Shown: positions 8,215 through 26,630 of the stretch, in pieces
Numbering within the stretch: the first letter of the stretch is position 1
Layout: every line of letters begins with the position of its first letter
Assembly (NCBI GenBank): GCA_014695345.1
Contig: JACJOC010000115.1
Location: 248,001-312,000, forward strand
Direction of reading: 5' to 3'
Length of the DNA stretch: 64,000 bases
Source of the DNA: Cyanobacteria bacterium FACHB-471
GTDB taxonomy: Bacteria; Cyanobacteriota; Cyanobacteriia; Elainellales; Elainellaceae
Notes under the pieces: model-generated
The model's input: the letters and a program-made list of their open reading frames with translations, nothing else
Told to the model about the DNA's origin: nothing
Databases searched by the model: none
Translations under genes and position numbers: made by a program

Positions 8215-8558
8215 TTTTAGTCATGGTTTCTTGAACTTTGCCGCCTGTCGATCAGGAATCAACGGCTGTTGAAATGTAATTTTTGGATGAAGGTACTCAT
8301 ATTTCCACCTAAAAATTACGTTCTGCTCAATCTCACGCAGTAAGACTAAGAAGGGCGACTACAGATTTACCTGCGATCGCCCCTCGTTCCAAATAGCAAC
8401 GCACAATTTCGTCGAAAGCAGCAGAATAGCACCTTCTGAGTTTGAGAAATTTTGCAGCGGATTTGGGCACGATTATACTAGGTCACTAAGTCGCACGTTC
8501 TAGTGCAGACCCAAAGACTCATCCCCTCTTATCTCTTCTCTTCTCACATCCATTAGCT
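8215..8558. other. Intergenic stretch with hairpins, upstream of a small gene
   Basis: Nothing longer than the small gene at 8559 is supported. GTAATTTTT near 8276 pairs with AAAAATTAC near 8320 and could end transcription of the pentapeptide gene. GGGCGA near 8355 pairs with TCGCCC near 8377 around a HIP1 site. TCTAGTGCAGAC at 8499-8510 recurs upstream of the related small gene at 16817. Confidence 0.4.
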
Positions 8559-8738
8559 ATGAATCGTAAACCTAATAGGAATCACTTCCCGTTGTGGAGC
8601 TATCTCAACCAGCCGCTGTTCAGCGCTCAGAAACCACTAATCCTCCGTCCTCGGAGATTTTGGTATTCTCACAACATTCGACACCTGGAACGCTGCTTGC
8701 AAAACGCCTACCGGCCGGAAGAGCATTTTCGTAGCTAA
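8559..8738 (+). CDS. Small HLERC-motif protein, 59 residues (copy 1)
   Basis: An ATG-TAA frame of 59 codons encodes a basic, aromatic-rich peptide that begins MNRKPNRNHFPLWSYL and carries HNIRHLERCLQ in its second half. The same motif, as HNQLKHLERCFQ, occurs in another short frame at 16817-16951, in the same position relative to the C-terminus. Two independent short frames sharing HN-x(2-3)-HLERC-x-Q argue that both are translated. No membrane segment or signal is present and the family is unknown to me. No strong Shine-Dalgarno sequence is seen. An intrinsic terminator follows at 8878. Confidence 0.6.
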   Translation: MNRKPNRNHFPLWSYLNQPLFSAQKPLILRPRRFWYSHNIRHLERCLQNAYRPEEHFRS

Positions 8739-8837
8739 AGGTTACTTGAACGCCCACTCATCCATCAACATCTCTTGTTCGTATCTAGAATAGGGCGTTT
8801 CGATTTGAACCCGCTTCTACCAAAAGCATTACTTAGC

Positions 8838-8901
8838 TCATGAATAGAAATAATTCATGAACATAAATAAATAGGGAGGGGGCGCAATACGTCCCCTTTT
8901 T
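8838..8901 (+). terminator. Hairpin and intrinsic terminator downstream of small gene 1
   Basis: TCATGAAT at 8838-8845 pairs with ATTCATGA at 8853-8860. Immediately after, GGGGGCG at 8878-8884 pairs with CGTCCCC at 8890-8896 (one G-T pair) with a five-base loop, followed by five T residues. The second hairpin has the form of a rho-independent terminator on the plus strand. Confidence 0.6.
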
Positions 8902-9158
8902 GCTTTTAAAGGGGGTGCTGCGCCAAGCCTTTCTGCAGCAACTCCGTTACCTGGGGCAAAGTTCCAGATTTCTGCTTTTGATTCCGGAATTGCTACCAAT
9001 CCGTAGGAAAAGTGATACGACAACCTGGGAGTCCTGGAAATTGGTTAATTAAGAAGATTTCGCAGGATTGAGGGGGGAGTCTGGAGTTGTGCTTCCGTCT
9101 CAGCCTATGTTGCCTGACTTTACACGCTGTTTGATTGAGCAACGGAGATAAGAGAATC

Positions 9159-10220
9159 GTGGCACTAACACCTACCTACTGCCTTGAAGGGGCTGAAAAT
9201 ACAAGAATTGCACTTTCACAAGAAAAGTTAAGGACCATCTTCAACCAAGTCGAAGCCGAGCTTTATCACAGTGAAACCTACCGTCGGGCTTTGTCGAGCT
9301 TACAAAAAACTGTAGGAGAGGCGATCGAAGGTCCTCAAGCACTGATCAAATCAGCTTGCAGAGAGGCAATTCGTTTAGCTCTCCGTCAGCTTGTCAAACA
9401 ATATCAGGTACCTGCAACTGCCAATCAGTCGGAGGTACAACATGCTGCTAGCCTGTTGAGCCAGCAGGAGGGCATTTCCTCTGCCCAAGAGCCTATCCAA
9501 GACAGTATTCCTCAAGCCATCTCAAACTTGCGTGAAAAGTCTGAGGTAGCTTCGTCGAGTGGTTTGGCAATTTCGCCAAAGGCAGAATTGTGTTCAAAAT
9601 CAAAGCGATCGCGTGCTGGCATCTTGGCGAAGGTTGATCCCAGTAAGCCTGATGCGACCGCTCAGCCTTCTAGCCCACCGCGCGAGATTTTAGTGCGACA
9701 AATTGGTCAAGAACTGCGCCATGCCCGTCAAGCTAAATCTCTTTCTCTTAACCAACTTCATAGCCTTACCTGGATTCCAATTCATCAACTCAAGGCATTG
9801 GAAGACGGTCAGGTTGAGCAATTGCCCGAAGACGTTTATGTGCGCGGTTTTATTCGACGTGTGGGAGATGCTTTAGAGCTAGATGGGGCAACCATGGCGG
9901 AGGCTTTGCCAGCTCCTGACACCGCTAAGACGGTGCTTCCCTCCTGGCAAATTTCAGACGAAACGTCTTCCTGCTTGCGTCCTGTCCACCTATATTTTGG
10001 ATATGCAGCATTGATGGCAGGAGCCGTAGGAGGACTAGCATGGATGGCTCAGCAGCCTTTCCCGGATGGGGCATTTAACCCTGAGCCGGACTCCTCACAG
10101 GAACTCGCTCAAACGACTAGTCGAAATCAGCGGCTGGACGTGATTCCAGGAATGAGAGCAAGTGGGGCAGGGGCGATCGCCGGAACAGATCTAGCTCCAC
10201 CAGAAACGATGCCATTCTAG
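9159..10220 (+). CDS. RodZ-like helix-turn-helix single-pass membrane protein
   Basis: With the GTG at 9159 as start (GGAG lies 11 bases before it; a TTG at 9135 is possible) the product has 353 residues. Residues about 176-250 form an HTH_25/RodZ-type domain: VRQIGQELRHARQAKSLSLNQL, then EQLPEDVYVRGFIRRVG. A single membrane segment, GYAALMAGAVGGLAWMA, sits near 280-297, followed by a short periplasmic tail. The N-terminal 130 residues are helical and not recognised. RodZ links MreB to the wall synthesis machinery in rods. This protein lacks the usual long RodZ C-terminus, so the role is inferred only from the domain. Confidence 0.8.
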   Translation: MALTPTYCLEGAENTRIALSQEKLRTIFNQVEAELYHSETYRRALSSLQKTVGEAIEGPQALIKSACREAIRLALRQLVKQYQVPATANQSEVQHAASLLSQQEGISSAQEPIQDSIPQAISNLREKSEVASSSGLAISPKAELCSKSKRSRAGILAKVDPSKPDATAQPSSPPREILVRQIGQELRHARQAKSLSLNQLHSLTWIPIHQLKALEDGQVEQLPEDVYVRGFIRRVGDALELDGATMAEALPAPDTAKTVLPSWQISDETSSCLRPVHLYFGYAALMAGAVGGLAWMAQQPFPDGAFNPEPDSSQELAQTTSRNQRLDVIPGMRASGAGAIAGTDLAPPETMPF

Positions 10221-10619
10221 GTTCATTCTCAACACAGTAGCTATTCGCTGATGGGGGGTGAAGCCCCCTAACACCTGGCGCTTCTTCCGGTCTTAGGATG
10301 ACTCTGGGTTATGATGGCTGTGAGGTTGCTGGACAACTTGTCAAGGCGACATTGGGAGATTTTGGCTTCCTACTTCGCTTACCTAGACGCTGGTATTGCT
10401 GAAGCGGTATGCTGCTAGGGCGATCGTTTTAACGCCTAAACAAGGAGCATCCTGGTAAGCACAGGTTAGGTTGTGTTCTTAGCTGAACGCTTCATTAAGT
10501 TGCTTAGCGCTGGAAGATGCTCTAAATAGGGCATTTGCTTAACCAGACAAGCTGTTGCCAGCACCCCTCGCCTCCCCAATAAGCGTTTATTGACCTCAGA
10601 GTTTGAGTATGATGGCTTC
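10221..10619. other. Intergenic stretch between the RodZ-like and Crp-like genes
   Basis: About 400 bases without a supported gene. GGGGG near 10254 pairs with CCCCC near 10264 around a TGAAG loop, a compact hairpin that may end the upstream transcript although no T-run follows. Short frames here have no homologue within the window and no ribosome site. Confidence 0.4.
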
Positions 10620-11321
10620 ATGGAAGACCGGTACAGCCCCCGTGAATCCCGCAACGATTCACTGATTCGATCTGCTCCTTTTTTCGACGGTTTGCCAGAA
10701 GCCCTTGTAGATAAGGCGACTGCTCACGTTGTTATTCGGAGCCACCCGCCGAATCAGGTAATTTTGTTGGAAAACGACTGGGGCAGCTCAGTCTACTTCA
10801 TCCTGGAAGGGTGGGTAAAGATTCGGACTTACAACTTGGATGGAAAGGAAGTCACACTCAATATTCTGGGTAAGGGCGAAGTCTTTGGTGAAATGGCTCC
10901 TCTAGATGAGGTGCCACGCTCAACGGATGTAATTACATTAGCTCCAACGGCGATCGGCAACATGCCTGCTCAGGATTTTGTGCAGCTAATCAACTCAGAG
11001 CCCCAAGCGGGTATTCGGTTAGCTCAGCTAATGGCGCGACGACTGCGTCAGGTCAACCGGCGGTTGAGACTGCGAGAGTCAGATAGCGTCTCGCGAGTAG
11101 CAGACATTCTCCTATTTTTGGCGGATGGTCAGGGAAAGCGGGGAGAACAGGGAATTGAGATTCCAAACTTGCCCCACCGCGAACTTAGCAGCCTTAGCGG
11201 ACTGGCACGGGAGACGGTGACTCGCGTGCTGAGTAAGCTGGAGCGTAAAGGGCTGATCCTACGTGAGCGGGATATTCTCTGTATTCCTGATGTCTATGCC
11301 TTGGAGCGTCTGTTGGTTTAG
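10620..11321 (+). CDS. Crp/Fnr family transcription regulator
   Basis: The 233-residue protein has an N-terminal cyclic-nucleotide-binding beta-roll. The phosphate-binding cassette reads GEVFGEMAPLDEVPRST, retaining the Glu and Arg-Ser pair that contact cyclic nucleotides in CRP. The C-terminal winged helix contains LSGLARETVTRVLSKLERKGLI, close to the CRP recognition helix (RETVGR). Binding of a TGTGA-type half-site is therefore a fair inference. There are no Fnr-type iron-sulphur cysteines. The ATG at 10620 is preferred over a TTG ten codons upstream. It is convergent with the kinase gene that ends at 11367. Confidence 0.9.
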   Translation: MEDRYSPRESRNDSLIRSAPFFDGLPEALVDKATAHVVIRSHPPNQVILLENDWGSSVYFILEGWVKIRTYNLDGKEVTLNILGKGEVFGEMAPLDEVPRSTDVITLAPTAIGNMPAQDFVQLINSEPQAGIRLAQLMARRLRQVNRRLRLRESDSVSRVADILLFLADGQGKRGEQGIEIPNLPHRELSSLSGLARETVTRVLSKLERKGLILRERDILCIPDVYALERLLV

Positions 11322-11366
11322 TAGAGGCTGGGGCTGGAGACTGAGGCAAGAAGGTACTCTCGCTTT

Positions 11367-12794
11367 CTACTTCACTTGCCGAGGTAATTCCACTCGAAAG
11401 GTTGAACCTTGCCCAGGGCTGCTCTCAACGCTGATGTCGCCGCCCATAATCCGAATCAGCCAATCTGCGATCGCCAGCCCCAGTCCTGCACCAGAATAGC
11501 GTCGGGACTGGCTCTGATCTGCCTGCCGAAATCTTTCAAAGATGTGGGAAAGGTCGCCTTTGCTAATGCCGATCCCGGTGTCCTGGATTGTGATCAGAGC
11601 GCGATCGCCAGAAATCGGCTCTAGCGACACTAGAATTCCACCGGACTCAGTAAATTTGATCGCATTGGAGATTAGGATGACCAAAATTTGATGGAGCCGA
11701 GTGCGGTCGTTTGAGACCATTAGCGTTTGCATGTCGGATTGCACCTGTAAGGACAACCCTTTTTGCTCGGCTTGCGATCGCATCTCTTCAACCGTAGCTC
11801 TAATTAAAAGCCCTAAATCTAGATTTTCTGGATTTAAGGCTAAATACCCTGCTTCTAAATTAGAGAGATCAAGAATGTTGTTGATCAGTGAGAGCAGGTT
11901 TCTGCCATTACTTAAAATCCGCTGCAGCATGTCTTCCTGAGAAGAATCGCTGAGATAACGACGCTGACGCAGCAACAGTTGCGAGAATCCGATAATCGCA
12001 TTCATCGGAGTTCGCAGCTCGTGTGAGATAGTTGCCAAGAATTGCGACTTGAGGCGGGCACTTTGTTGAAGCTGCTGCTGCTGCTGCTGAATCTGCTGCT
12101 GTTGTTGCGCCAGTTTAGAGGTTTGCTGGAGCAGTAGCTCATTTTGAGCCGTTAAGTGATTTTCTCGCTCCTTCAAAGTATTTAGAAGTTGAGCTTGTTG
12201 AGAGGCGATCGCTCCCTGCGTCAGCAGGTTGGCAGACTGTCCAATAACGCTTGCTATTGTTGATACACCCTGCCAAGCCGCGTAGCTTGGCACTACCTCA
12301 CCGCCTTCACCTTCATCTCTCAGTTGAATTCCATCTGGCTGCATTGCTAAAGGCAAGTGAGTATGAATTGCGCCCCAAGCTTCAATTTGACCTGTGCTGC
12401 TCAAAGGAACAAGCTGAACCAGAAATTTTTGACATGTACCATTCGGCTGAAATAAACGGTAAATTAGGGTGAACTGGTTTGCAGCAATCTCAGCCTGCTG
12501 CCAGAGGCTTAAAAACCGATCGCGGTCCTGTGGATGAAGAGCTTGGAGGAAATCCTGCTTCAGCGATGCTGCCATTGTCAAGCCAGTGTAGCTGCACCAG
12601 TGCTGATTCACCCAAACAACCGATTTATTCGCATCTGCTAGCCAGATGAGGTGGGGGATAGCTTGAAGCAACTGCTGCTGCCTGGTTTCATAAGCCTGCA
12701 AACGCAATCTCAGTTGCTCCACCTCAACTGAAGGCGGTTCTTCTACTGGAGAGGGGGTAGACTCAGACATCTGCTGATTGAAAGCAGGATTCAT
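11367..12794 (-). CDS. PAS-domain sensor histidine kinase
   Basis: Soluble 475-residue kinase. A PAS domain spans about 42-150 (LIWLADANKSVVWVNQHW), followed by a Gln-rich coiled coil near 205-250 and a HisKA dimerisation domain with the phospho-acceptor His at about 258 in ISHELRTPMNAIIGFSQ. The HATPase domain shows the N box (LVILISNAIKFTE), G1 (DTGIGIS) and G2 (GAGLGLAI). It has no receiver domain. It lies head-to-head with the NarL-type regulator at 13076, separated by 281 bases, so the two may form a pair. The signal sensed by PAS is unknown. Confidence 0.93.
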   Translation of the reverse strand: MNPAFNQQMSESTPSPVEEPPSVEVEQLRLRLQAYETRQQQLLQAIPHLIWLADANKSVVWVNQHWCSYTGLTMAASLKQDFLQALHPQDRDRFLSLWQQAEIAANQFTLIYRLFQPNGTCQKFLVQLVPLSSTGQIEAWGAIHTHLPLAMQPDGIQLRDEGEGGEVVPSYAAWQGVSTIASVIGQSANLLTQGAIASQQAQLLNTLKERENHLTAQNELLLQQTSKLAQQQQQIQQQQQQLQQSARLKSQFLATISHELRTPMNAIIGFSQLLLRQRRYLSDSSQEDMLQRILSNGRNLLSLINNILDLSNLEAGYLALNPENLDLGLLIRATVEEMRSQAEQKGLSLQVQSDMQTLMVSNDRTRLHQILVILISNAIKFTESGGILVSLEPISGDRALITIQDTGIGISKGDLSHIFERFRQADQSQSRRYSGAGLGLAIADWLIRIMGGDISVESSPGQGSTFRVELPRQVK

Positions 12795-13075
12795 AACGTT
12801 CTTGTTTTAAAAGCAACAGGTCGCTAAACCGTACATCCAGTTCGGTAGTCGTATGTTACCTCTCGGTTTAGGTTGGACGTGGAGGCACAAATTAGTGGAC
12901 TTCTAGACAAACGGCTCGATTGCTACACTTCGTATCGTTGAACCCATGAAGCTGGCTCACTTGTCGGTATAGTCGATATAGTTGGCTAGCCGTTAGCTAG
13001 TCTAGATACATTCTTCAACTGCTCCCCTTCCTTTGCCATCGTCACAAAGTTGCAGAAAGTTGCACAAATGAGATC

Positions 13076-13789
13076 ATGAGTGAAATTTACGTTGCCCTGA
13101 TTGAAGATCATGACCTGACGCGAGTTGGAATGCGAACTGCCTTACAACAGCAACAAGGTGTAAAAGTGGTTGGCGAAGCAGCCAACGCCACAGAAGGATT
13201 ACAGTTACTACAGTCTTCCAAGCCCGATGTCGCGATTGTGGACATTGGCTTGCCAGATATGGATGGGGTTGAGCTGACTCGCCGCTTCCGCGATTTTCAG
13301 GCGAGCTCAGAAGAGACTAAGACAAAAGTTTTAATTCTGACTCTAAATGACAATGAAGAGACTGTTTTGGCGGCTTTTGCGGCAGGGGCAGATTCTTACT
13401 GCATGAAGGATGTCAGCCTTGACAAGCTGATGGAAGCGCTGCAAGTGACCCATGAAGGCAATAGCTGGATTGATCCGGCGATCGCCCGAATTGTGCTATC
13501 TCAAGCCCGTCAACCTCAGCCCGCTGCCGTCGAGGTAGAGCCGACCGTTGCGATCAATGCCGCTGCCCCAGAATACAACCAGATTCTAGAGACCTATCCT
13601 CTGACCGAGCGTGAGCTAGAGGTGCTAGAGCTAATTGTGGCGGGCTGTAGCAATGCGGCGATCGCTGACCGTCTTTACATCACTGTAGGCACCGTCAAAA
13701 CGCACGTCCGCAACATTCTCAACAAGCTCTGCGCTGATGACCGCACTCAGGCTGCTGTTCGGGCACTTCGCTCTGGGCTAGTTGGTTAA
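13076..13789 (+). CDS. NarL/LuxR-family response regulator
   Basis: A receiver domain occupies residues 1-125 with acidic pocket E10/D11, phospho-acceptor D56 in VDIGLPDMDG and the conserved Lys in CMKDVS. A LuxR-type winged-free HTH fills about 175-237: LTERELEVLELIVAGCSNAAIADRL, GTVKTHVRNILNKL. It is a DNA-binding output regulator. It is divergent from the PAS kinase gene at 12794, a plausible partner. The spacer holds a CTAGC-CGTTA-GCTAG inverted repeat near 12990 that could be an operator, though this is only a guess. Confidence 0.93.
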   Translation: MSEIYVALIEDHDLTRVGMRTALQQQQGVKVVGEAANATEGLQLLQSSKPDVAIVDIGLPDMDGVELTRRFRDFQASSEETKTKVLILTLNDNEETVLAAFAAGADSYCMKDVSLDKLMEALQVTHEGNSWIDPAIARIVLSQARQPQPAAVEVEPTVAINAAAPEYNQILETYPLTERELEVLELIVAGCSNAAIADRLYITVGTVKTHVRNILNKLCADDRTQAAVRALRSGLVG

Positions 13790-14064
13790 AGCTCATCTCT
13801 TATCGTTTGAGTCGGGGCAGTTTTGGTCAAGCACACAAAAAGCGCTTGACCTATTTGTGTGGTAATCAACATATAGCAGAGGCATCTACTGTTTAATATC
13901 CGGTAGAACATTAGAAGAATTGCTGATGTCGTCTCTGAATCTACGTCTTTGCCATCCAATTCAGTCAAACTATCTACACAGCAGACTTCAATTAGAAGTT
14001 TTGCCATTTTTGGTTGAGAATTTCTTGCGATCGCGTCACACGATTGGGGGAGTGAAGTAACCGC

Positions 14065-15780
14065 ATGACTCAAGCAGGCGAGAGCAAGCTGAGATTAATG
14101 GTTGTAGATGACGAATCTGACAACCTTGACTTGCTCTATCGAACCTTTCGGCGTGAGTTTGACGTGTTCAAGGCGGAGAGCGCACTGATCGCACTAAGAC
14201 TTCTAGACCAGGAAGGGGAGATGGCAGTGATCATCTCCGACCAGCGAATGCCAAAAATGAGCGGCACTGAGTTTCTGAGCCGCACGGTTGAGCGTTTCCC
14301 CGATACGATTCGGATTGTATTAACAGGCTACACGGATGTCGAAGACCTGGTAGGCGCAATTAATACAGGCAAGGTTTTCAAATACATCACCAAGCCTTGG
14401 AATCCGGACGAACTGAAGCGGGTGGTGCAACAGGCGGCTGATACGTACCGGATCGTCAAGCAGCGCACAACTGAGCTACAGCGTGCCCTACGACGAGAAT
14501 CCCTATTTAACGCTGTCACCACTGCGATTCGAGAGTCTTTGGACTATCGCAGTATGCTGCAAACCGTCGTCAACACGATTGGTCGAACTTTTACTGCCGA
14601 TGCCTGTATTCTTCGCCCTGTTGAAAGTGTGGGTGATCCCATCCATCACCGTCTGCTAGACGAAGTTTTCTCCTACAGAACTGAAGCATCCGCCGCAGAA
14701 TTAAGCCAGAACGACGCGAATCAACCAGGAGCAATTGCCGCAGTCGCATTAAAAGAAGCGATCGCCACCCGCCAGATTCAGATCATCCCAGCCGAACACC
14801 AAACATCACCCTACAACCAACTCATTGTTCCGCTCAGCTACCAGCAAGATTTTCTAGCCATTCTTGTGCTTTATAGGGGGAGCGATCGCCTCTGGAGTGT
14901 CGAAGAAATCGAGCTGATTGAAGGTGTTTCTCAACAGGCATCTTTAGCCATCTCCCAGGCAAAGCTTTATCAGCAGATTCAAGAACAGACCGAGCAGATG
15001 CGGACAGAGCTAGCCGTAGCCCGACAAATTCAAAGCAACCTGCTACGCCAAACCCTACCCGAAGTAGAAGGAGTTAAAGTTCAGGCGTGCTGCTATCCTG
15101 CTCGCGAAGTTGGAGGAGATTTTTTTGAAGTTTATCAGCATCCCCAAGGCGACCTCTGGCTAGCAGTCGGAGACGTTTCTGGCAAAGGTGTGCCTGCGGC
15201 TTTATTCATGGCCAGTGCGATCTCAGTGCTACGGCGTGAGCTATCTCAAGAAAACCCGCCCGCACCCAACATCGTCATGCGCCACCTCAACAGCAGCCTT
15301 TCAGAAGATTTGGTGGGAAGTAACTGTTTCATCACGATGGTCTTGGCCCGATACACGCCCTCGACCCAGCAATTGGTATACGCAAATGCAGGACATATCT
15401 ATCCTCTGATCTGGTCACCGCAGCAAGTCCTGGCTCTAGCAAATAAGCCAGACGTGACTGTAGAGCCAACTTATTTAGAAGTGCGTGGAGTTCCTCTGGG
15501 TATCCTGCCAGTATGGCAAGCTGCTGCTGAAGAACTTACCTTAAAATCGGGGCAAATCTTGTTACTCGCCAGTGATGGCATCACAGAAGCGACCGTTTCA
15601 GACGAAACAATTGGAACTAGCCAGCAATCAACTCGCTCAATGCTGAAACAATCAGGGCTTTGGAGACTGCTCATCCAACAACAAGGTGAGCTTAGCCTAA
15701 CCCACCTACTTACCAAAATTCGCGCTCATCATAAAGTTCAGGAAGATGACCAAACCATTCTTTCTCTGGAGGTTCTGTAG
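14065..15780 (+). CDS. REC-GAF-PP2C response regulator phosphatase (RsbU/SpoIIE type)
   Basis: The 571-residue protein has a receiver domain at 1-125 (D15/D16 pocket, D59 acceptor in SDQRMPKMSG, Lys in YITKPW), a GAF-like domain at about 150-310 ending QQASLAISQAKLYQQI, a short coiled coil and a PP2C/SpoIIE phosphatase domain from about 330. Metal-binding acidic motifs are EVGGDFFEVY, AVGDVSGKGVPAALFMA and LLLASDGITEA. Such proteins dephosphorylate anti-anti-sigma factors when their receiver is phosphorylated. The next gene, three bases downstream, is an RsbW-like ATPase, which fits a partner-switch. No STAS-domain antagonist lies in the window. Confidence 0.92.
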   Translation: MTQAGESKLRLMVVDDESDNLDLLYRTFRREFDVFKAESALIALRLLDQEGEMAVIISDQRMPKMSGTEFLSRTVERFPDTIRIVLTGYTDVEDLVGAINTGKVFKYITKPWNPDELKRVVQQAADTYRIVKQRTTELQRALRRESLFNAVTTAIRESLDYRSMLQTVVNTIGRTFTADACILRPVESVGDPIHHRLLDEVFSYRTEASAAELSQNDANQPGAIAAVALKEAIATRQIQIIPAEHQTSPYNQLIVPLSYQQDFLAILVLYRGSDRLWSVEEIELIEGVSQQASLAISQAKLYQQIQEQTEQMRTELAVARQIQSNLLRQTLPEVEGVKVQACCYPAREVGGDFFEVYQHPQGDLWLAVGDVSGKGVPAALFMASAISVLRRELSQENPPAPNIVMRHLNSSLSEDLVGSNCFITMVLARYTPSTQQLVYANAGHIYPLIWSPQQVLALANKPDVTVEPTYLEVRGVPLGILPVWQAAAEELTLKSGQILLLASDGITEATVSDETIGTSQQSTRSMLKQSGLWRLLIQQQGELSLTHLLTKIRAHHKVQEDDQTILSLEVL

Positions 15781-15783
15781 TTA

Positions 15784-16212
15784 ATGAGAACTGAACTGCA
15801 TGTACCGAGCGATCTCAAGTTTTTGACAATCGTTGAAAACTGGCTTTTAGGTTCCCTGGAATCTGAGTTAGGCAATGAAGTTGATTGGCCACGTCAGTCT
15901 AATCGGCTTCGCCTGGTTTTGGTAGAAGCTTATTCCAACGTAGTACGTCACGCTCACCGCGATCAGCCCAACTTGCCTGTGCTGATTCGCCTAGAGCTTC
16001 GAAATCGGGATATCTGCCTGGAAATTTGGGATCATGGGAAGGGGTTTGACCTATCTACATATCTGCCGCCCACTCCAGAAGACCAGCAAGACGGAGGGTA
16101 TGGCTGGCTAATTCTTAACCGTCTGATGGATAAGGTAGAATACCGGCTTCAAGTTAATGGGCGAAACTGTCTCAGACTAGAAGCAACCTTGTCCAATCAA
16201 GAACAACATTAA
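15784..16212 (+). CDS. RsbW-like anti-sigma regulatory ATPase/kinase
   Basis: This 142-residue protein is a stand-alone HATPase_c_2 domain. The N box is LVLVEAYSNVVRHAH, the G1 box is IWDHGKGFDL and a degenerate G2 reads GGYGWLILNRL. In this family the protein is a serine kinase that inactivates a STAS antagonist and may bind a sigma factor. It begins three bases after the stop of the REC-GAF-PP2C gene, so the two are translated together and probably act in opposition on the same substrate. Confidence 0.9.
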   Translation: MRTELHVPSDLKFLTIVENWLLGSLESELGNEVDWPRQSNRLRLVLVEAYSNVVRHAHRDQPNLPVLIRLELRNRDICLEIWDHGKGFDLSTYLPPTPEDQQDGGYGWLILNRLMDKVEYRLQVNGRNCLRLEATLSNQEQH

Positions 16213-16816
16213 ACTCGCAGAAAGATTGAGGGACAATAGCCAGACGCACTTCGTTAAACCGCTTTGCATCTATCCACCCTATCTGTTGCCCGGTGCCTGC
16301 TTCTTTAACTAACCGAGCTGTGATTTGAAACTGTAAGGTTGAGGCGGAACGATACATCCCACAGCAAAAAATCCACATGGCTTCAGTCGTTCAAAAAAGC
16401 TGAGTATGAGGCTAAATATGAGGCGTTTTGGGTAGATTGGGGAGAAGGGTTAAAAAGGTAAGCCAAATCAAAAGTGCAAAGATGCCGACCATAGTTCACC
16501 TGTAGTGTGTGAAGAACTAAGCGTTGCTACATAAACTTCACTGATTTTCACTCCTGTAACACCTTTACCCCATCTATCCAATTGCTCATCTTTTGCAATG
16601 GAATAAGGTGCGTATCCTCCTCACAAAAAATCCTCAACAATAGACACCCGCGCCACCATTCACGCTTCAAAAAATGATTCATACAGGGAGTCTAGTGCAG
16701 ACAAAGGCGGGACTGTTTAGGACACCTTTCTGTAAAGTAGCATGAGAGATTTTTTAAGCTGTCGTCTAGGAGACATCCGTAGGGAAAACTGAGGCAAAAG
16801 GTTTAGGAATGCAGCT
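16213..16816. other. Intergenic stretch upstream of small gene 2
   Basis: Six hundred bases without a supported long gene. A minus-strand frame at 16172-16378 overlaps the RsbW-like gene and has no recognisable features. TCTAGTGCAGAC at 16691-16702 is identical to a 12-mer upstream of small gene 1. I see no terminator with a T-run and no known RNA motif. Confidence 0.4.
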
Positions 16817-16951
16817 ATGAAGAAGATTTGGGTCAGACTTGAGATTTGGAGTCTATCTCATTTACCAGCTTTGCCGATCGTGAGACTACACAACCAGCTC
16901 AAGCACCTCGAACGCTGTTTTCAGGTTTCCTGTGTGCAGGAATGGGAGTAA
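16817..16951 (+). CDS. Small HLERC-motif protein, 44 residues (copy 2)
   Basis: ATG-TAA frame of 44 codons, beginning MKKIWVRLEIWSLSHLPALP and carrying HNQLKHLERCFQ at residues 25-36. The motif is shared with the 59-residue peptide at 8559. Outside the motif the two differ, although both have a Trp-rich N-terminal half and a short acidic tail (QEWE here, PEEH there). AGGAATGCAGCT before the ATG offers a ribosome site. The stop is 15 bases from the 3' end of the convergent histidine kinase gene. Function unknown. Confidence 0.6.
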   Translation: MKKIWVRLEIWSLSHLPALPIVRLHNQLKHLERCFQVSCVQEWE

Positions 16952-19499: not shown

Positions 19500-21170
19500 T
19501 TAGACCTTACTAAGGTACTGGTGGATGAATTGGACAGCGATCGCCCCTTCTCCCACCCCCGAAGCAACCCGTTTAATGGAACCGTAACGCACATCTCCGG
19601 CAACAAAGATGCCGGGGACGCTGGCTTCTAGCAGGAATGGGTTGCGGTCTAGTGTCCAACCGCGGGGTCGCTGGCGCTCACGCAACAGGTCAGGACCGGT
19701 TAGAACAAAGCCTTTTTCGTCTCGTTCAACAACACCGCTGAGCCAATCGGTTTGAGGACTAGCTCCAATGAAAATAAATAGCGATTTGGCAGGAACGTAC
19801 TGCGTTTCGCCCGTCTGGGAATTGGCGATCGCAATCTTCTCTAAATGCCCATCGCCCTGCACCTCGACCACACTGCAATAGGGACAAACTGTAATGTTGG
19901 GCGTTGATTCGATCTGGGCAATCAGATATTGAGACATGCTTTTGACGAGGGATTCACCCCGCACCAGCATCGTCACCTGACTGGCGTAGCGAGAGAAATA
20001 CATTGCTGCTTGACCGGCCGAGTTTGCGCCACCGACGATGTAGACATGTTCACCCTGACAGGCGATCGCCTCCGTCATTGCTGCGCCGTAATACACTCCT
20101 GCCCCAGTCAACGGTTCGCTGCCTGGCACATCAAGCTTGCGATAGGACACTCCTGTCGCAATCATCAGTGCGTGGCAGCTAAGCTCTGTACCGTCTACCA
20201 GTTTGAGGATGCGGTAGGGATCTTCTACCCGAACCCCAATCGCTTCTTGGGGAGACAAGATTTCTACGCCAAAGCGTTTGGCTTGCGTCACGGCCCGACG
20301 AGCCAGATCGTTACCCGAAAGCCCCACTGGAAAGCCAAGGTAGTTTTCGATGCGAGAGCTTGAACCCGCCTGTCCACCGGGAGCCTGACGCTCGATCATC
20401 AGCGTGCTTAATCCTTCGGAGGCTCCATAAACTGCGGCTGCCAGTCCAGCCGGGCCACCACCCACAATTACTAGATCGTAAAAGGGGCGATCGGCTTGAG
20501 TTTTCAGCCCGATCTTAGTGGCAATTTCAGCATTAGAGGGCTGGCTGAGGTGTGAACCATCCGGGAACACAATGGTAGGAAGACGTATGGCATCTTCCCG
20601 TCCTGCGTTGGCATAAGATAATAGCTGGGTGGCCTCTTCCGATTGCTCAAAATCGAGCCACTGGTAGGGCACCTGGTTGCGGGCTAAGAAATCCTTCACC
20701 TGGTGAGATTGGGGCGACCAACGGTTGCCAACGACGCGAATCCCCTCAAAAGGTGGACGAAAGGATGCTTGCCAGTCATCCAGTAAGTCATCTAACACAG
20801 GATAAAGCCGCTCCTCTGGAGGATCCCAAGGTTTGAGCAAATAATAATCGAGCTTAGCTGCATTGATTGCCTGAATCGCTGCATCCGTGTCTGCGTAGGC
20901 AGTTAGCAAAACCCGCTTGGCATCCGGGAAAATTTCCATTCCCTGTTCTAAAAATTCAACGCCTGTCATTTGAGGCATTCGTTGGTCTGCCAAAAACAAG
21001 GCGACGGATTCATTTCGCAAGCTAAGCTGCTGAGCAGCTTCTAGAGCTGCTGCCCCGGAGTCTGCCCGCACAACTCGAAAGCGATCGCCATATTGATGTC
21101 GCAGGTCACGGGCGATCGCCTGCAACACTTCAGGATCATCATCAACGGTCAAGATTGCAGGTTTAGCCAT
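19500..21170 (-). CDS. Response regulator fused to thioredoxin-reductase-like flavoprotein lacking the CxxC
   Basis: The 556-residue protein starts with a receiver domain (pocket at D10-D12, acceptor D62 in LADQRMPQMTG, Lys in YYLLKPWDP). A glutaredoxin-like segment with no CxxC follows at about 145-230 (GIRVVGNRWSPQSHQVKDFL). The remainder is a class II pyridine nucleotide-disulphide oxidoreductase: FAD motif IVGGGPAGLAAAVYGA near 240, NADPH-fold motif YIVGGANSAGQAA near 385 and the C-terminal FVAGDVR. Where thioredoxin reductase has CATC the sequence reads GAAM, so the redox disulphide is absent. Such REC fusions are known in other bacteria. A flavin-based sensor or oxidase role regulated by phosphorylation is inferred. 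Confidence 0.9.
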   Translation of the reverse strand: MAKPAILTVDDDPEVLQAIARDLRHQYGDRFRVVRADSGAAALEAAQQLSLRNESVALFLADQRMPQMTGVEFLEQGMEIFPDAKRVLLTAYADTDAAIQAINAAKLDYYLLKPWDPPEERLYPVLDDLLDDWQASFRPPFEGIRVVGNRWSPQSHQVKDFLARNQVPYQWLDFEQSEEATQLLSYANAGREDAIRLPTIVFPDGSHLSQPSNAEIATKIGLKTQADRPFYDLVIVGGGPAGLAAAVYGASEGLSTLMIERQAPGGQAGSSSRIENYLGFPVGLSGNDLARRAVTQAKRFGVEILSPQEAIGVRVEDPYRILKLVDGTELSCHALMIATGVSYRKLDVPGSEPLTGAGVYYGAAMTEAIACQGEHVYIVGGANSAGQAAMYFSRYASQVTMLVRGESLVKSMSQYLIAQIESTPNITVCPYCSVVEVQGDGHLEKIAIANSQTGETQYVPAKSLFIFIGASPQTDWLSGVVERDEKGFVLTGPDLLRERQRPRGWTLDRNPFLLEASVPGIFVAGDVRYGSIKRVASGVGEGAIAVQFIHQYLSKV

Positions 21171-26133: not shown

Positions 26134-26630
26134 TAGGACAAGCCTCACTCAAAGCAAAATGAAAAAGTATTGCACCATCAGTTTACCGTGATGCCACAGG
26201 CTTTTGTTTCGGTCTGTCAAAAGATACATTGACGCACCTAAAGAGCAGTGCTAACTTATTTGGAAATCGAATAAGTAAGTCAGCCTAATCTGGACTGGCG
26301 TTTGTCTGCGATTCAGCCTCAAACGCAAATTCAGAGCGGAGGAACCAAATTTTGGGGCTTATCGTTAGCACGGTTATGAGGCTTGTTGGTTAGGGAGATT
26401 GCTCGTTCATCCCTCATCCTTCATTCTTCATCCCTAACGAGGGACACCTCTCAGTCCTAGCCCGTCAGCTAACTCCGTCGGCATTGAGAGGAGACTGAAG
26501 AATCAGCATTTTACTACTGCTCGATACTTCAGTGTCCTCGTATACACGCAAGGACGCTTTTTTTGTGCTCTCTACCGAGCGGCACAGCGTTCCTTGGTCT
26601 GCGATCGCCTCGCACTCTCAGGAGAGTTCA
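26134..26630. other. Divergent intergenic region and structured leader of the ABC operon
   Basis: About 500 bases separate plsY from the permease. The left half is unremarkable. A polypyrimidine patch (26402-26440) is closed by CTCGTT/AACGAG. From 26446 onward several mutually exclusive stems can form, ending in a T-run at 26558-26564. I searched for a GTA-N8-TAC NtcA site and found none that is exact. Confidence 0.5.
26488..26564 (+). promoter_or_regulatory. Attenuator-like leader: competing antiterminator and terminator stems
   Basis: GAGGAGACTGAAG (26488-26500) pairs with CTTCAGTGTCCTC (26527-26539) in 12 of 13 positions. The 3' part of that stem, GTGTCCT (26532-26538), can instead pair with AGGACGC (26551-26557), giving a 7-bp hairpin directly followed by seven T residues. 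A third segment, CCTCTCA (26446-26452), is complementary to TGAGAGG (26485-26491) and could block the first stem. The T-run ends 66 bases before the permease ATG. The arrangement is that of a transcription attenuator. It matches no riboswitch class I can recall. Confidence 0.55.

What the first reader, a model, noticed from the sequence alone, without database searches (positions are those of the whole stretch)
8559..16951. Two unannotated small genes share a HLERC motif
The sequence shows two short ATG-stop frames, 59 codons at 8559-8738 and 44 codons at 16817-16951, 8 kb apart on the same strand. Both place HN-x(2-3)-HLERC-x-Q in the second half and have Trp-rich first halves. The rest of the proteins differs, so they are not a recent duplication of DNA. 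Conserved protein sequence across diverged DNA is a sign of translation. I know of no named family with this motif. Both sit inside the two-component signalling district.
Basis: partly seen in the sequence, partly recalled or inferred. Interest (0 to 1): 0.7.

Follow-up and report, generated by a model that had tools for sequence, protein, structure and literature searches.

The report
Small cyanobacterial proteins sharing LERC motif
Two tiny genes in this cyanobacterial genome are real and belong to unnamed families of small proteins that share a short motif; one family is found across a large part of the cyanobacteria and in a few genomes is placed under a glutamine sensor, which suggests a role as a small regulator.

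Summary
P1 (8559-8738, 59 aa) and P2 (16817-16951, 44 aa) are genuine protein-coding genes. P1-type proteins match in 30 of 36 genomes of the family and 222 of 388 of the class; strong P2 matches are in 12 genomes, all of the family. Both show purifying selection (dN/dS 0.03-0.07 and 0.10). Neither has a significant Pfam, NCBIfam or PDB match. P1 and P2 are linked only by the HLERC helix: the profile match vanishes when those five columns are masked. Some paralogues carry two or three (F/L)LExCW motifs in tandem, so the motif looks like a binding unit. In another family the P1 module is fused to DUF4278, the N-terminal module of glutamine synthetase inactivating factor IF17; the four full-length fusions found (three genomes) sit behind a glutamine riboswitch. 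Best reading: a partner-binding microprotein that works like the cyanobacterial inhibitors IF7/IF17 and PirA; it has no sequence similarity to the IFs, and its target is unknown. The 'two-component district' is probably incidental.

The parts
8559..8738 (+). P1, 59-aa small protein; core FPLWxxLNQPxF...PLILxPxRFWxxYxIxxLERCW...RPEE
   Evidence: matches in 30/36 family and 222/388 class genomes; dN/dS 0.026-0.074
16817..16951 (+). P2, 44-aa small protein; core W-x-L-x-HLPLLP-x2-RR-x4-HLE(R/K)C
   Evidence: strong matches in 12 genomes, all of the window's family; dN/dS 0.10
8649..8708 (+). predicted helix of P1, residues 31-50, carrying HLERC (8682-8696)
   Evidence: AlphaFold2 model, helix 31-50, pLDDT about 75 there, 63 overall
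8462..8479 (+). upstream element of P1, TTTGGGCAn3TTATACT; with a TTTGCA box at 8451 it makes a promoter-like pair (17-nt spacer)
   Evidence: 4 exact copies in 36 family genomes, each at P1; 19 one-mismatch copies lie elsewhere, reversed-pattern control 14 (positions compared). Promoter-like scan: 1 found, 1.1 expected in shuffles, so the scan alone is no evidence
8878..8901 (+). terminator-like hairpin with T run after P1, by eye
   Evidence: sequence; kept in L012 and L013; not among the 2 sites of the terminator scan

Best explanation
P1 and P2 are two families of small, mostly basic proteins of oxygenic cyanobacteria, probably cytosolic. Each exposes a short amphipathic helix ending in L-E-(R/K)-C-(W/L/F), which folds onto a protein partner. 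P1 is transcribed alone from its own promoter, and its amount sets the effect, as with the glutamine synthetase inactivating factors IF7/IF17 and the PII-binding PirA. In some lineages the motif was multiplied (two or three copies) or joined to DUF4278 under a glutamine riboswitch. This points to a role in carbon/nitrogen control as an inhibitor or adaptor of an enzyme or signalling protein not yet identified. SHOWN: genes, selection, motif, repetition, fusion, riboswitch. INFERRED: the single-gene transcript; that the motif binds a protein; that the output is inhibition; that the ordinary P1 is also tied to nitrogen status.
For: Coding. Core of invariant W13, Q18, P26, L43, E44, C46. No confident fold of its own: pLDDT 63 for P1, 49 for the three-motif relative, helices only. 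Tandem motifs in paralogues, e.g. L148 with LEACW, FLEECW, FLEGCW and L156 with LKRCW, LLERCW, LLERCW. Fusion to DUF4278 (PF14105: L268 E 9.9e-12, L266 6.6e-8, L271 2.3e-10) in family f39, and a glutamine riboswitch RF01739 about 27-32 nt before each of the 4 full-length fusions found, in three genomes (L268, L266, L270, L271). Two further riboswitch genes of one genus carry (H/Y)LERCWSK in another 142-aa protein. DUF4278 is the N-terminal part of IF17 and its genes are the main companions of cyanobacterial glutamine aptamers (PMC6316151, passages); of 60 riboswitches read here, 52 precede a frame with Y(R/K)G. Family is mostly basic, median pI 9.7, range 6.5-11.5, of 85; IFs and PirA are described as rich in positive residues.
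Against: The fusion was found only in family f39: 1 of 308 class genomes at E <= 1e-9, G213 itself, plus G464 and G482. Two further f39 loci of the kind, L267 (DUF4278 only at E 0.052) and the partial L277, have no riboswitch match. Ordinary P1 has no riboswitch in the window nor in the six P1 loci L131, L135, L142, L262, L256, L257, and no excess of NtcA sites (3 of 85, shuffles 5.4). No sequence similarity to the IF core or DUF4278 (hhalign probability 0.9 and 0.2). The window's genome has its own IF17-type gene (L339, by eye). No clear operon partner. The P1-P2 link rests on five columns. (H/Y)LERCWSK in two orthologous proteins could be chance. No target is known. AlphaFold used only 7 sequences.
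Confidence: 0.4

Rival explanations
1. P1 is a small structural or assembly subunit of a cyanobacterial complex (photosystem, NDH-1, phycobilisome, cell-division or RodZ-type), held by its aromatic N-terminal segment and LERCW helix.
For: In a sample of the phylum all 33 matching genomes (of 117) are of the class; of the genomes outside the class only 4 are listed, without a match. Very conserved aromatic core. In 5 of 21 loci, window included, P1 lies 0.4-0.7 kb before a RodZ-like gene.
Against: No match in 166 of 388 class genomes (only some candidates were scored per genome, so a few may be missed). Paralogues with one to three motifs, and riboswitch control in f39, fit a regulator better than a fixed-ratio subunit.
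Confidence: 0.25
2. P1 is a peripheral membrane peptide: the W/F-rich segment and the amphipathic helix lie in the membrane and recruit or stabilise something there.
For: Aromatic, mostly basic sequence; helices only in the models.
Against: The L-E-x-C string is conserved and in places multiplied, which lipid binding does not need. Fusion to DUF4278.
Confidence: 0.12
3. P1 and P2 are unrelated and the HLERC match is convergence.
For: Similarity vanishes when HLERC is masked: probability 0.6. 5-mers are often shared by chance.
Against: hhalign score 39.9 against a maximum of 18.8 in 100 column shuffles; the P2 profile meets P1 genes at the motif in 3 genomes, weakly, E 0.007-0.009 (G010, G013, G029).
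Confidence: 0.35
4. The ORFs are chance and not translated.
For: None after the searches.
Against: Orthologues and dN/dS; the other two frames give ratios of 0.85 to 3.0.
Confidence: 0.01

Closest known systems
Glutamine synthetase inactivating factors IF7/IF17 (GifA/GifB)
   Same: Small cyanobacterial proteins rich in positive residues; in f39 the LERC module shares DUF4278 and the glutamine riboswitch with gifB-type genes.
   Different: No similarity to the IF core; P1 of the window lacks DUF4278 and riboswitch; no NtcA-site excess in 85 upstream regions; target unknown.
PirA (Ssr0692), PII-interacting regulator
   Same: 51 aa, positively charged, cyanobacterial (PMC8092223, passages).
   Different: Sequences not compared here (PirA was not held); PirA is NtcA-repressed, whereas P1 shows no NtcA-site excess.
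NirP1, nitrite reductase-interacting protein
   Same: Small cyanobacterial regulator with one conserved Cys and conserved Trp residues (PMC10907346, passages).
   Different: 81 aa, pI 4.59, predicted beta strands; P1 is mostly basic with helices only. Sequences not compared.
DUF4278 (PF14105)
   Same: Short-repeat (YRG) small proteins of cyanobacteria; fused to the LERC module in f39.
   Different: P1 itself has no match.

Membership tests
Glutamine synthetase inactivating factor (IF7/IF17) | similarity to the IF core (RARxLMMxHHRxxKxRQQxMLxR...) | tested here: not met
   hhalign of A1 against ten hand-picked IF17-type rows: probability 0.9; A2: 0.4
Glutamine synthetase inactivating factor (IF7/IF17) | NtcA-repressed promoter | tested here: inconclusive
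   only a consensus scan: GTA-N8-TAC in 3 of 85 P1 upstream regions, shuffles 5.4
Glutamine synthetase inactivating factor (IF7/IF17) | binds and inactivates glutamine synthetase | not testable with these tools
   needs an enzyme assay
DUF4278 family / glutamine-riboswitch genes | DUF4278 domain | tested here: not met
   no Pfam match for P1 or P2 and none to DUF4278 among 28 A1 rows; met by the f39 fusions L268, L266, L271
DUF4278 family / glutamine-riboswitch genes | glutamine riboswitch RF01739 in the 5' leader | tested here: not met
   none in the window; met by the 4 full-length f39 fusions, not by L267 or L277
PirA | PII binding and PirA sequence similarity | not tested
   PirA sequence not held; resemblance in size and charge only
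P1 family (this report) | short frame with W13, Q18, P26, L43-E44, C46 kept and purifying selection | tested here: met

The most novel reading that the evidence does not exclude
The LERC(W) proteins are a second, ancient class of cyanobacterial protein-based metabolic inhibitors, parallel to the glutamine synthetase inactivating factors: a short Cys-Trp helix, used singly or in tandem, that switches off or tethers a so far unknown C/N enzyme or signalling protein, and that one lineage put under direct glutamine control by fusing it to DUF4278.
Probability: 0.3. Interest if true: 0.78.

Novelty: new variant of a known kind. Interest (0 to 1): 0.6.

Why it matters
A gene matched in 222 of 388 sampled genomes of its class, under strong selection, has no significant match in Pfam or NCBIfam. 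Cyanobacteria control key enzymes by small proteins, and few of these are known in detail. A motif that is repeated, fused to the inactivating-factor accessory module and put behind a glutamine riboswitch gives a concrete, testable entry to a new regulator.

Tried and rejected
Mobile elements: P1 against plasmids and one P1 relative against phages gave no match; A1 against viral contigs gave 39 pattern matches, none a relative; P2 was not searched there. Literature: of 323 papers holding a motif string, the 30 listed were unrelated by title; listings showed no paper that I recognised as describing P1; passages of PMC10907346, PMC5126843, PMC8557916, PMC6316151, PMC11288750, PMC8092223 and PMC7760959 were read, no whole paper; supplements were not available. 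Norf1, Norf4, NsiR6, HliR1 and Ssr1169 were not compared by sequence; lengths, charge and features given in PMC5126843 do not suggest P1. Operon function; besides the RodZ-like gene (5 of 21 with the window), kinase-type proteins (5 loci, the window included), a transporter-like group (5) and a protein-kinase-like group (3) recur, at scattered distances. Regulon by upstream element: family element, 4 exact hits, each at P1, 19 one-mismatch hits elsewhere, control 14; other families' element, in 20 of 24 hand-picked genomes, 20 of 23 hits at P1 (14 of 14 exact ones), 3 one-mismatch hits elsewhere, control 4. Neither gives a regulon. Fusions: no other long frame stood out among the listed matches (lists capped). 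The shared CTAGTGCAGAC upstream of both genes is not kept upstream of P2 in L042.

Selections before counts: A1 holds 28 of 30 P1 rows (two near-duplicates left out); A2 holds 12 of 16 candidate rows (L051 has a stop in the match; L061, L066, L067 did not look related). Start codons were set mechanically (nearest upstream ATG). The A5 search found the long three-motif form only in the 8 genomes it was built from. Labels f1, f39 and so on are the tool's numbers. Correction: an earlier count gave 34-35 nt spacing for 22 of 26 leaders; the right count is 20 of 26, with two at 36-37 and four without.

Full report
Observation. The two frames are present as described: P1 at 8559-8738 and P2 at 16817-16951, both +. 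The shared string is HN-x2-HLERC-x-Q in P1 and HN-x3-HLERC-x-Q in P2. Inside one window such a match is only suggestive, since 163 of 41,328 pairs of short ORFs share some identical 5-mer.

Are they genes? P1: a protein search of 36 genomes of the order, own genome included, gave matches at E <= 1e-9 in 30. A 28-row profile (A1) found matches at E <= 0.01 in 222 of 388 class genomes, among them 30 of the 36 of the family. Two genomes with matches have contig lengths that I recall for Thermosynechococcus BP-1 (G064) and Synechococcus elongatus PCC 6301 (G065); this naming is recall. P2: a 12-row profile (A2) gave 13 places at E <= 1e-10 in 12 genomes, all of the window's family; one of the 13 (G029) holds a TAG. 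A further P2-like frame, start unclear, lies outside the family (L106, G148, E 2.9e-4); most other matches near that level look like chance. Codon comparison with congeners: P1 dN/dS 0.074, 0.068 and 0.026 (three pairs); P2 0.103 (one pair); third-position changes dominate; the two other frames give 0.85 to 3.0. In the relatives the alignable protein begins at the ATG.

No named family. P1 and P2 gave no Pfam match. Of 28 A1 rows a few gave matches to unrelated families, E 0.014 or weaker, in NCBIfam and Pfam; 12 A2 rows gave none in NCBIfam. PDB sequences gave none for A1 and three non-significant ones for A2 (E 0.28 or weaker).

Relation of P1 to P2. hhalign gives probability 95.5 and score 39.9; 100 column shuffles of A1 reach at most 18.8. 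Masking the five HLERC columns in A1 drops the probability to 0.6. The two families thus share a motif; common descent beyond it is not shown.

Anatomy. P1 consensus: FPLWxFLNQPxFDxxxPLILNPxRFWxxYQIxYLERCWxxxYRPEExFRN. AlphaFold2 with seven rows gives helices 12-16 and 31-50, mean pLDDT 63; the three-motif relative L011 gives helices with mean pLDDT 49. Paralogues repeat the motif: L144 and L148 three times, L145 twice by the pattern used, L156 (from a congener of the window) three times. The long three-motif form is in 8 genomes of the family, those from which its profile was built, and in no other of 388. These features suggest a linear binding motif.

Fusion and riboswitch. In genome G213 three of four relatives carry YRG segments: L268 and L266 pass the Pfam cut-off for DUF4278, L267 does not (E 0.052). 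Relatives of the fusion occur in G464 and G482 of the same family f39. A glutamine riboswitch lies directly before the four full-length fusions (L268, L266, L270, L271); DUF4278 was confirmed by Pfam in three of these four. L267 and the partial L277 show no riboswitch. A wider search found the fusion in 1 of 308 genomes, G213 itself. [quoted passage not shown] here 52 of 60 riboswitches precede a frame with Y(R/K)G. In that test 3 of 60 met the LExC pattern: L320 and L338, with (H/Y)LERCWSK, and L337, an unconvincing frame beside a YRG frame. Thus the LERC module occupies, in one lineage, the place of a glutamine-controlled effector module. Extension to the ordinary P1 is inference.

Not a member of the inactivating factors. 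A1 against the IF core: probability 0.9; NtcA-like sites in 3 of 85 upstream regions (shuffles 5.4); the window genome has its own IF17-type gene behind a riboswitch (L339).

Expression. P1 may be a single-gene unit: a promoter-like pair at 8451-8479 (the scan finds 1, shuffles 1.1, so this alone is no evidence), a pyrimidine-rich leader without a clear Shine-Dalgarno sequence, and a hairpin with T run near 8878-8901 (both by eye). In the window's family TTTGGGCAn3TTATACT occurs without mismatch four times in 36 genomes, each time at P1. In other families TTCCGCAATCnTnACnAGG precedes P1, with a second element 34-35 nt further in 20 of 26 leaders, 36-37 nt in two, not found in four; in 24 chosen genomes the first is found in 20, at P1 in each. 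This is a dedicated control element of unknown kind.

Context. P1 neighbours: pentapeptide protein and HTH_25 protein; the latter recurs in 5 of 21 loci with the window. P2 neighbours differ between genera. The two-component district is therefore probably not a clue to function.

Verdict. The finding is real. The mechanism is inferred, at about 0.4, from motif repetition, fusion and riboswitch in a related lineage.

Noticed in passing
L320/L111 (G171) and L338 (G133): Glutamine-riboswitch genes that encode a 142-aa protein with (H/Y)LERCWSK and a C-terminal FWYAYDP-TGQTTYLESE segment; no significant Pfam match for L111.
   Followed up: partly
upstream of P1 in other families, e.g. L142, L191, L359: Closely spaced pair of elements, TTCCGCAATCnTnACnAGG then TTTGGCAT 34-35 nt on in 20 of 26 leaders, found at P1 in 20 of 24 genomes searched; part forms an inverted repeat such as AGATT-CCGC-AATCT. 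Operator or RNA leader not decided.
   Followed up: partly
window 8500-8510 and 16692-16702: Identical CTAGTGCAGAC upstream of both P1 and P2; 3 matches with up to one mismatch in the window against 0.8 expected.
   Followed up: partly
window 19500-21170: Response-regulator receiver fused to a pyridine nucleotide-disulphide oxidoreductase.
   Followed up: no
window 14065-16212: Receiver-GAF-SpoIIE phosphatase next to an RsbW-type ATPase, likely a partner-switching pair.
   Followed up: no
window 26305-26498: c-di-AMP riboswitch, 58.2 bits.
   Followed up: no
L135 13502-13721: HEARO RNA near a P1 locus, 141 bits.
   Followed up: no
L273 1444-1911: Two tandem, very similar P1 copies beside a tmRNA gene.
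   Followed up: no
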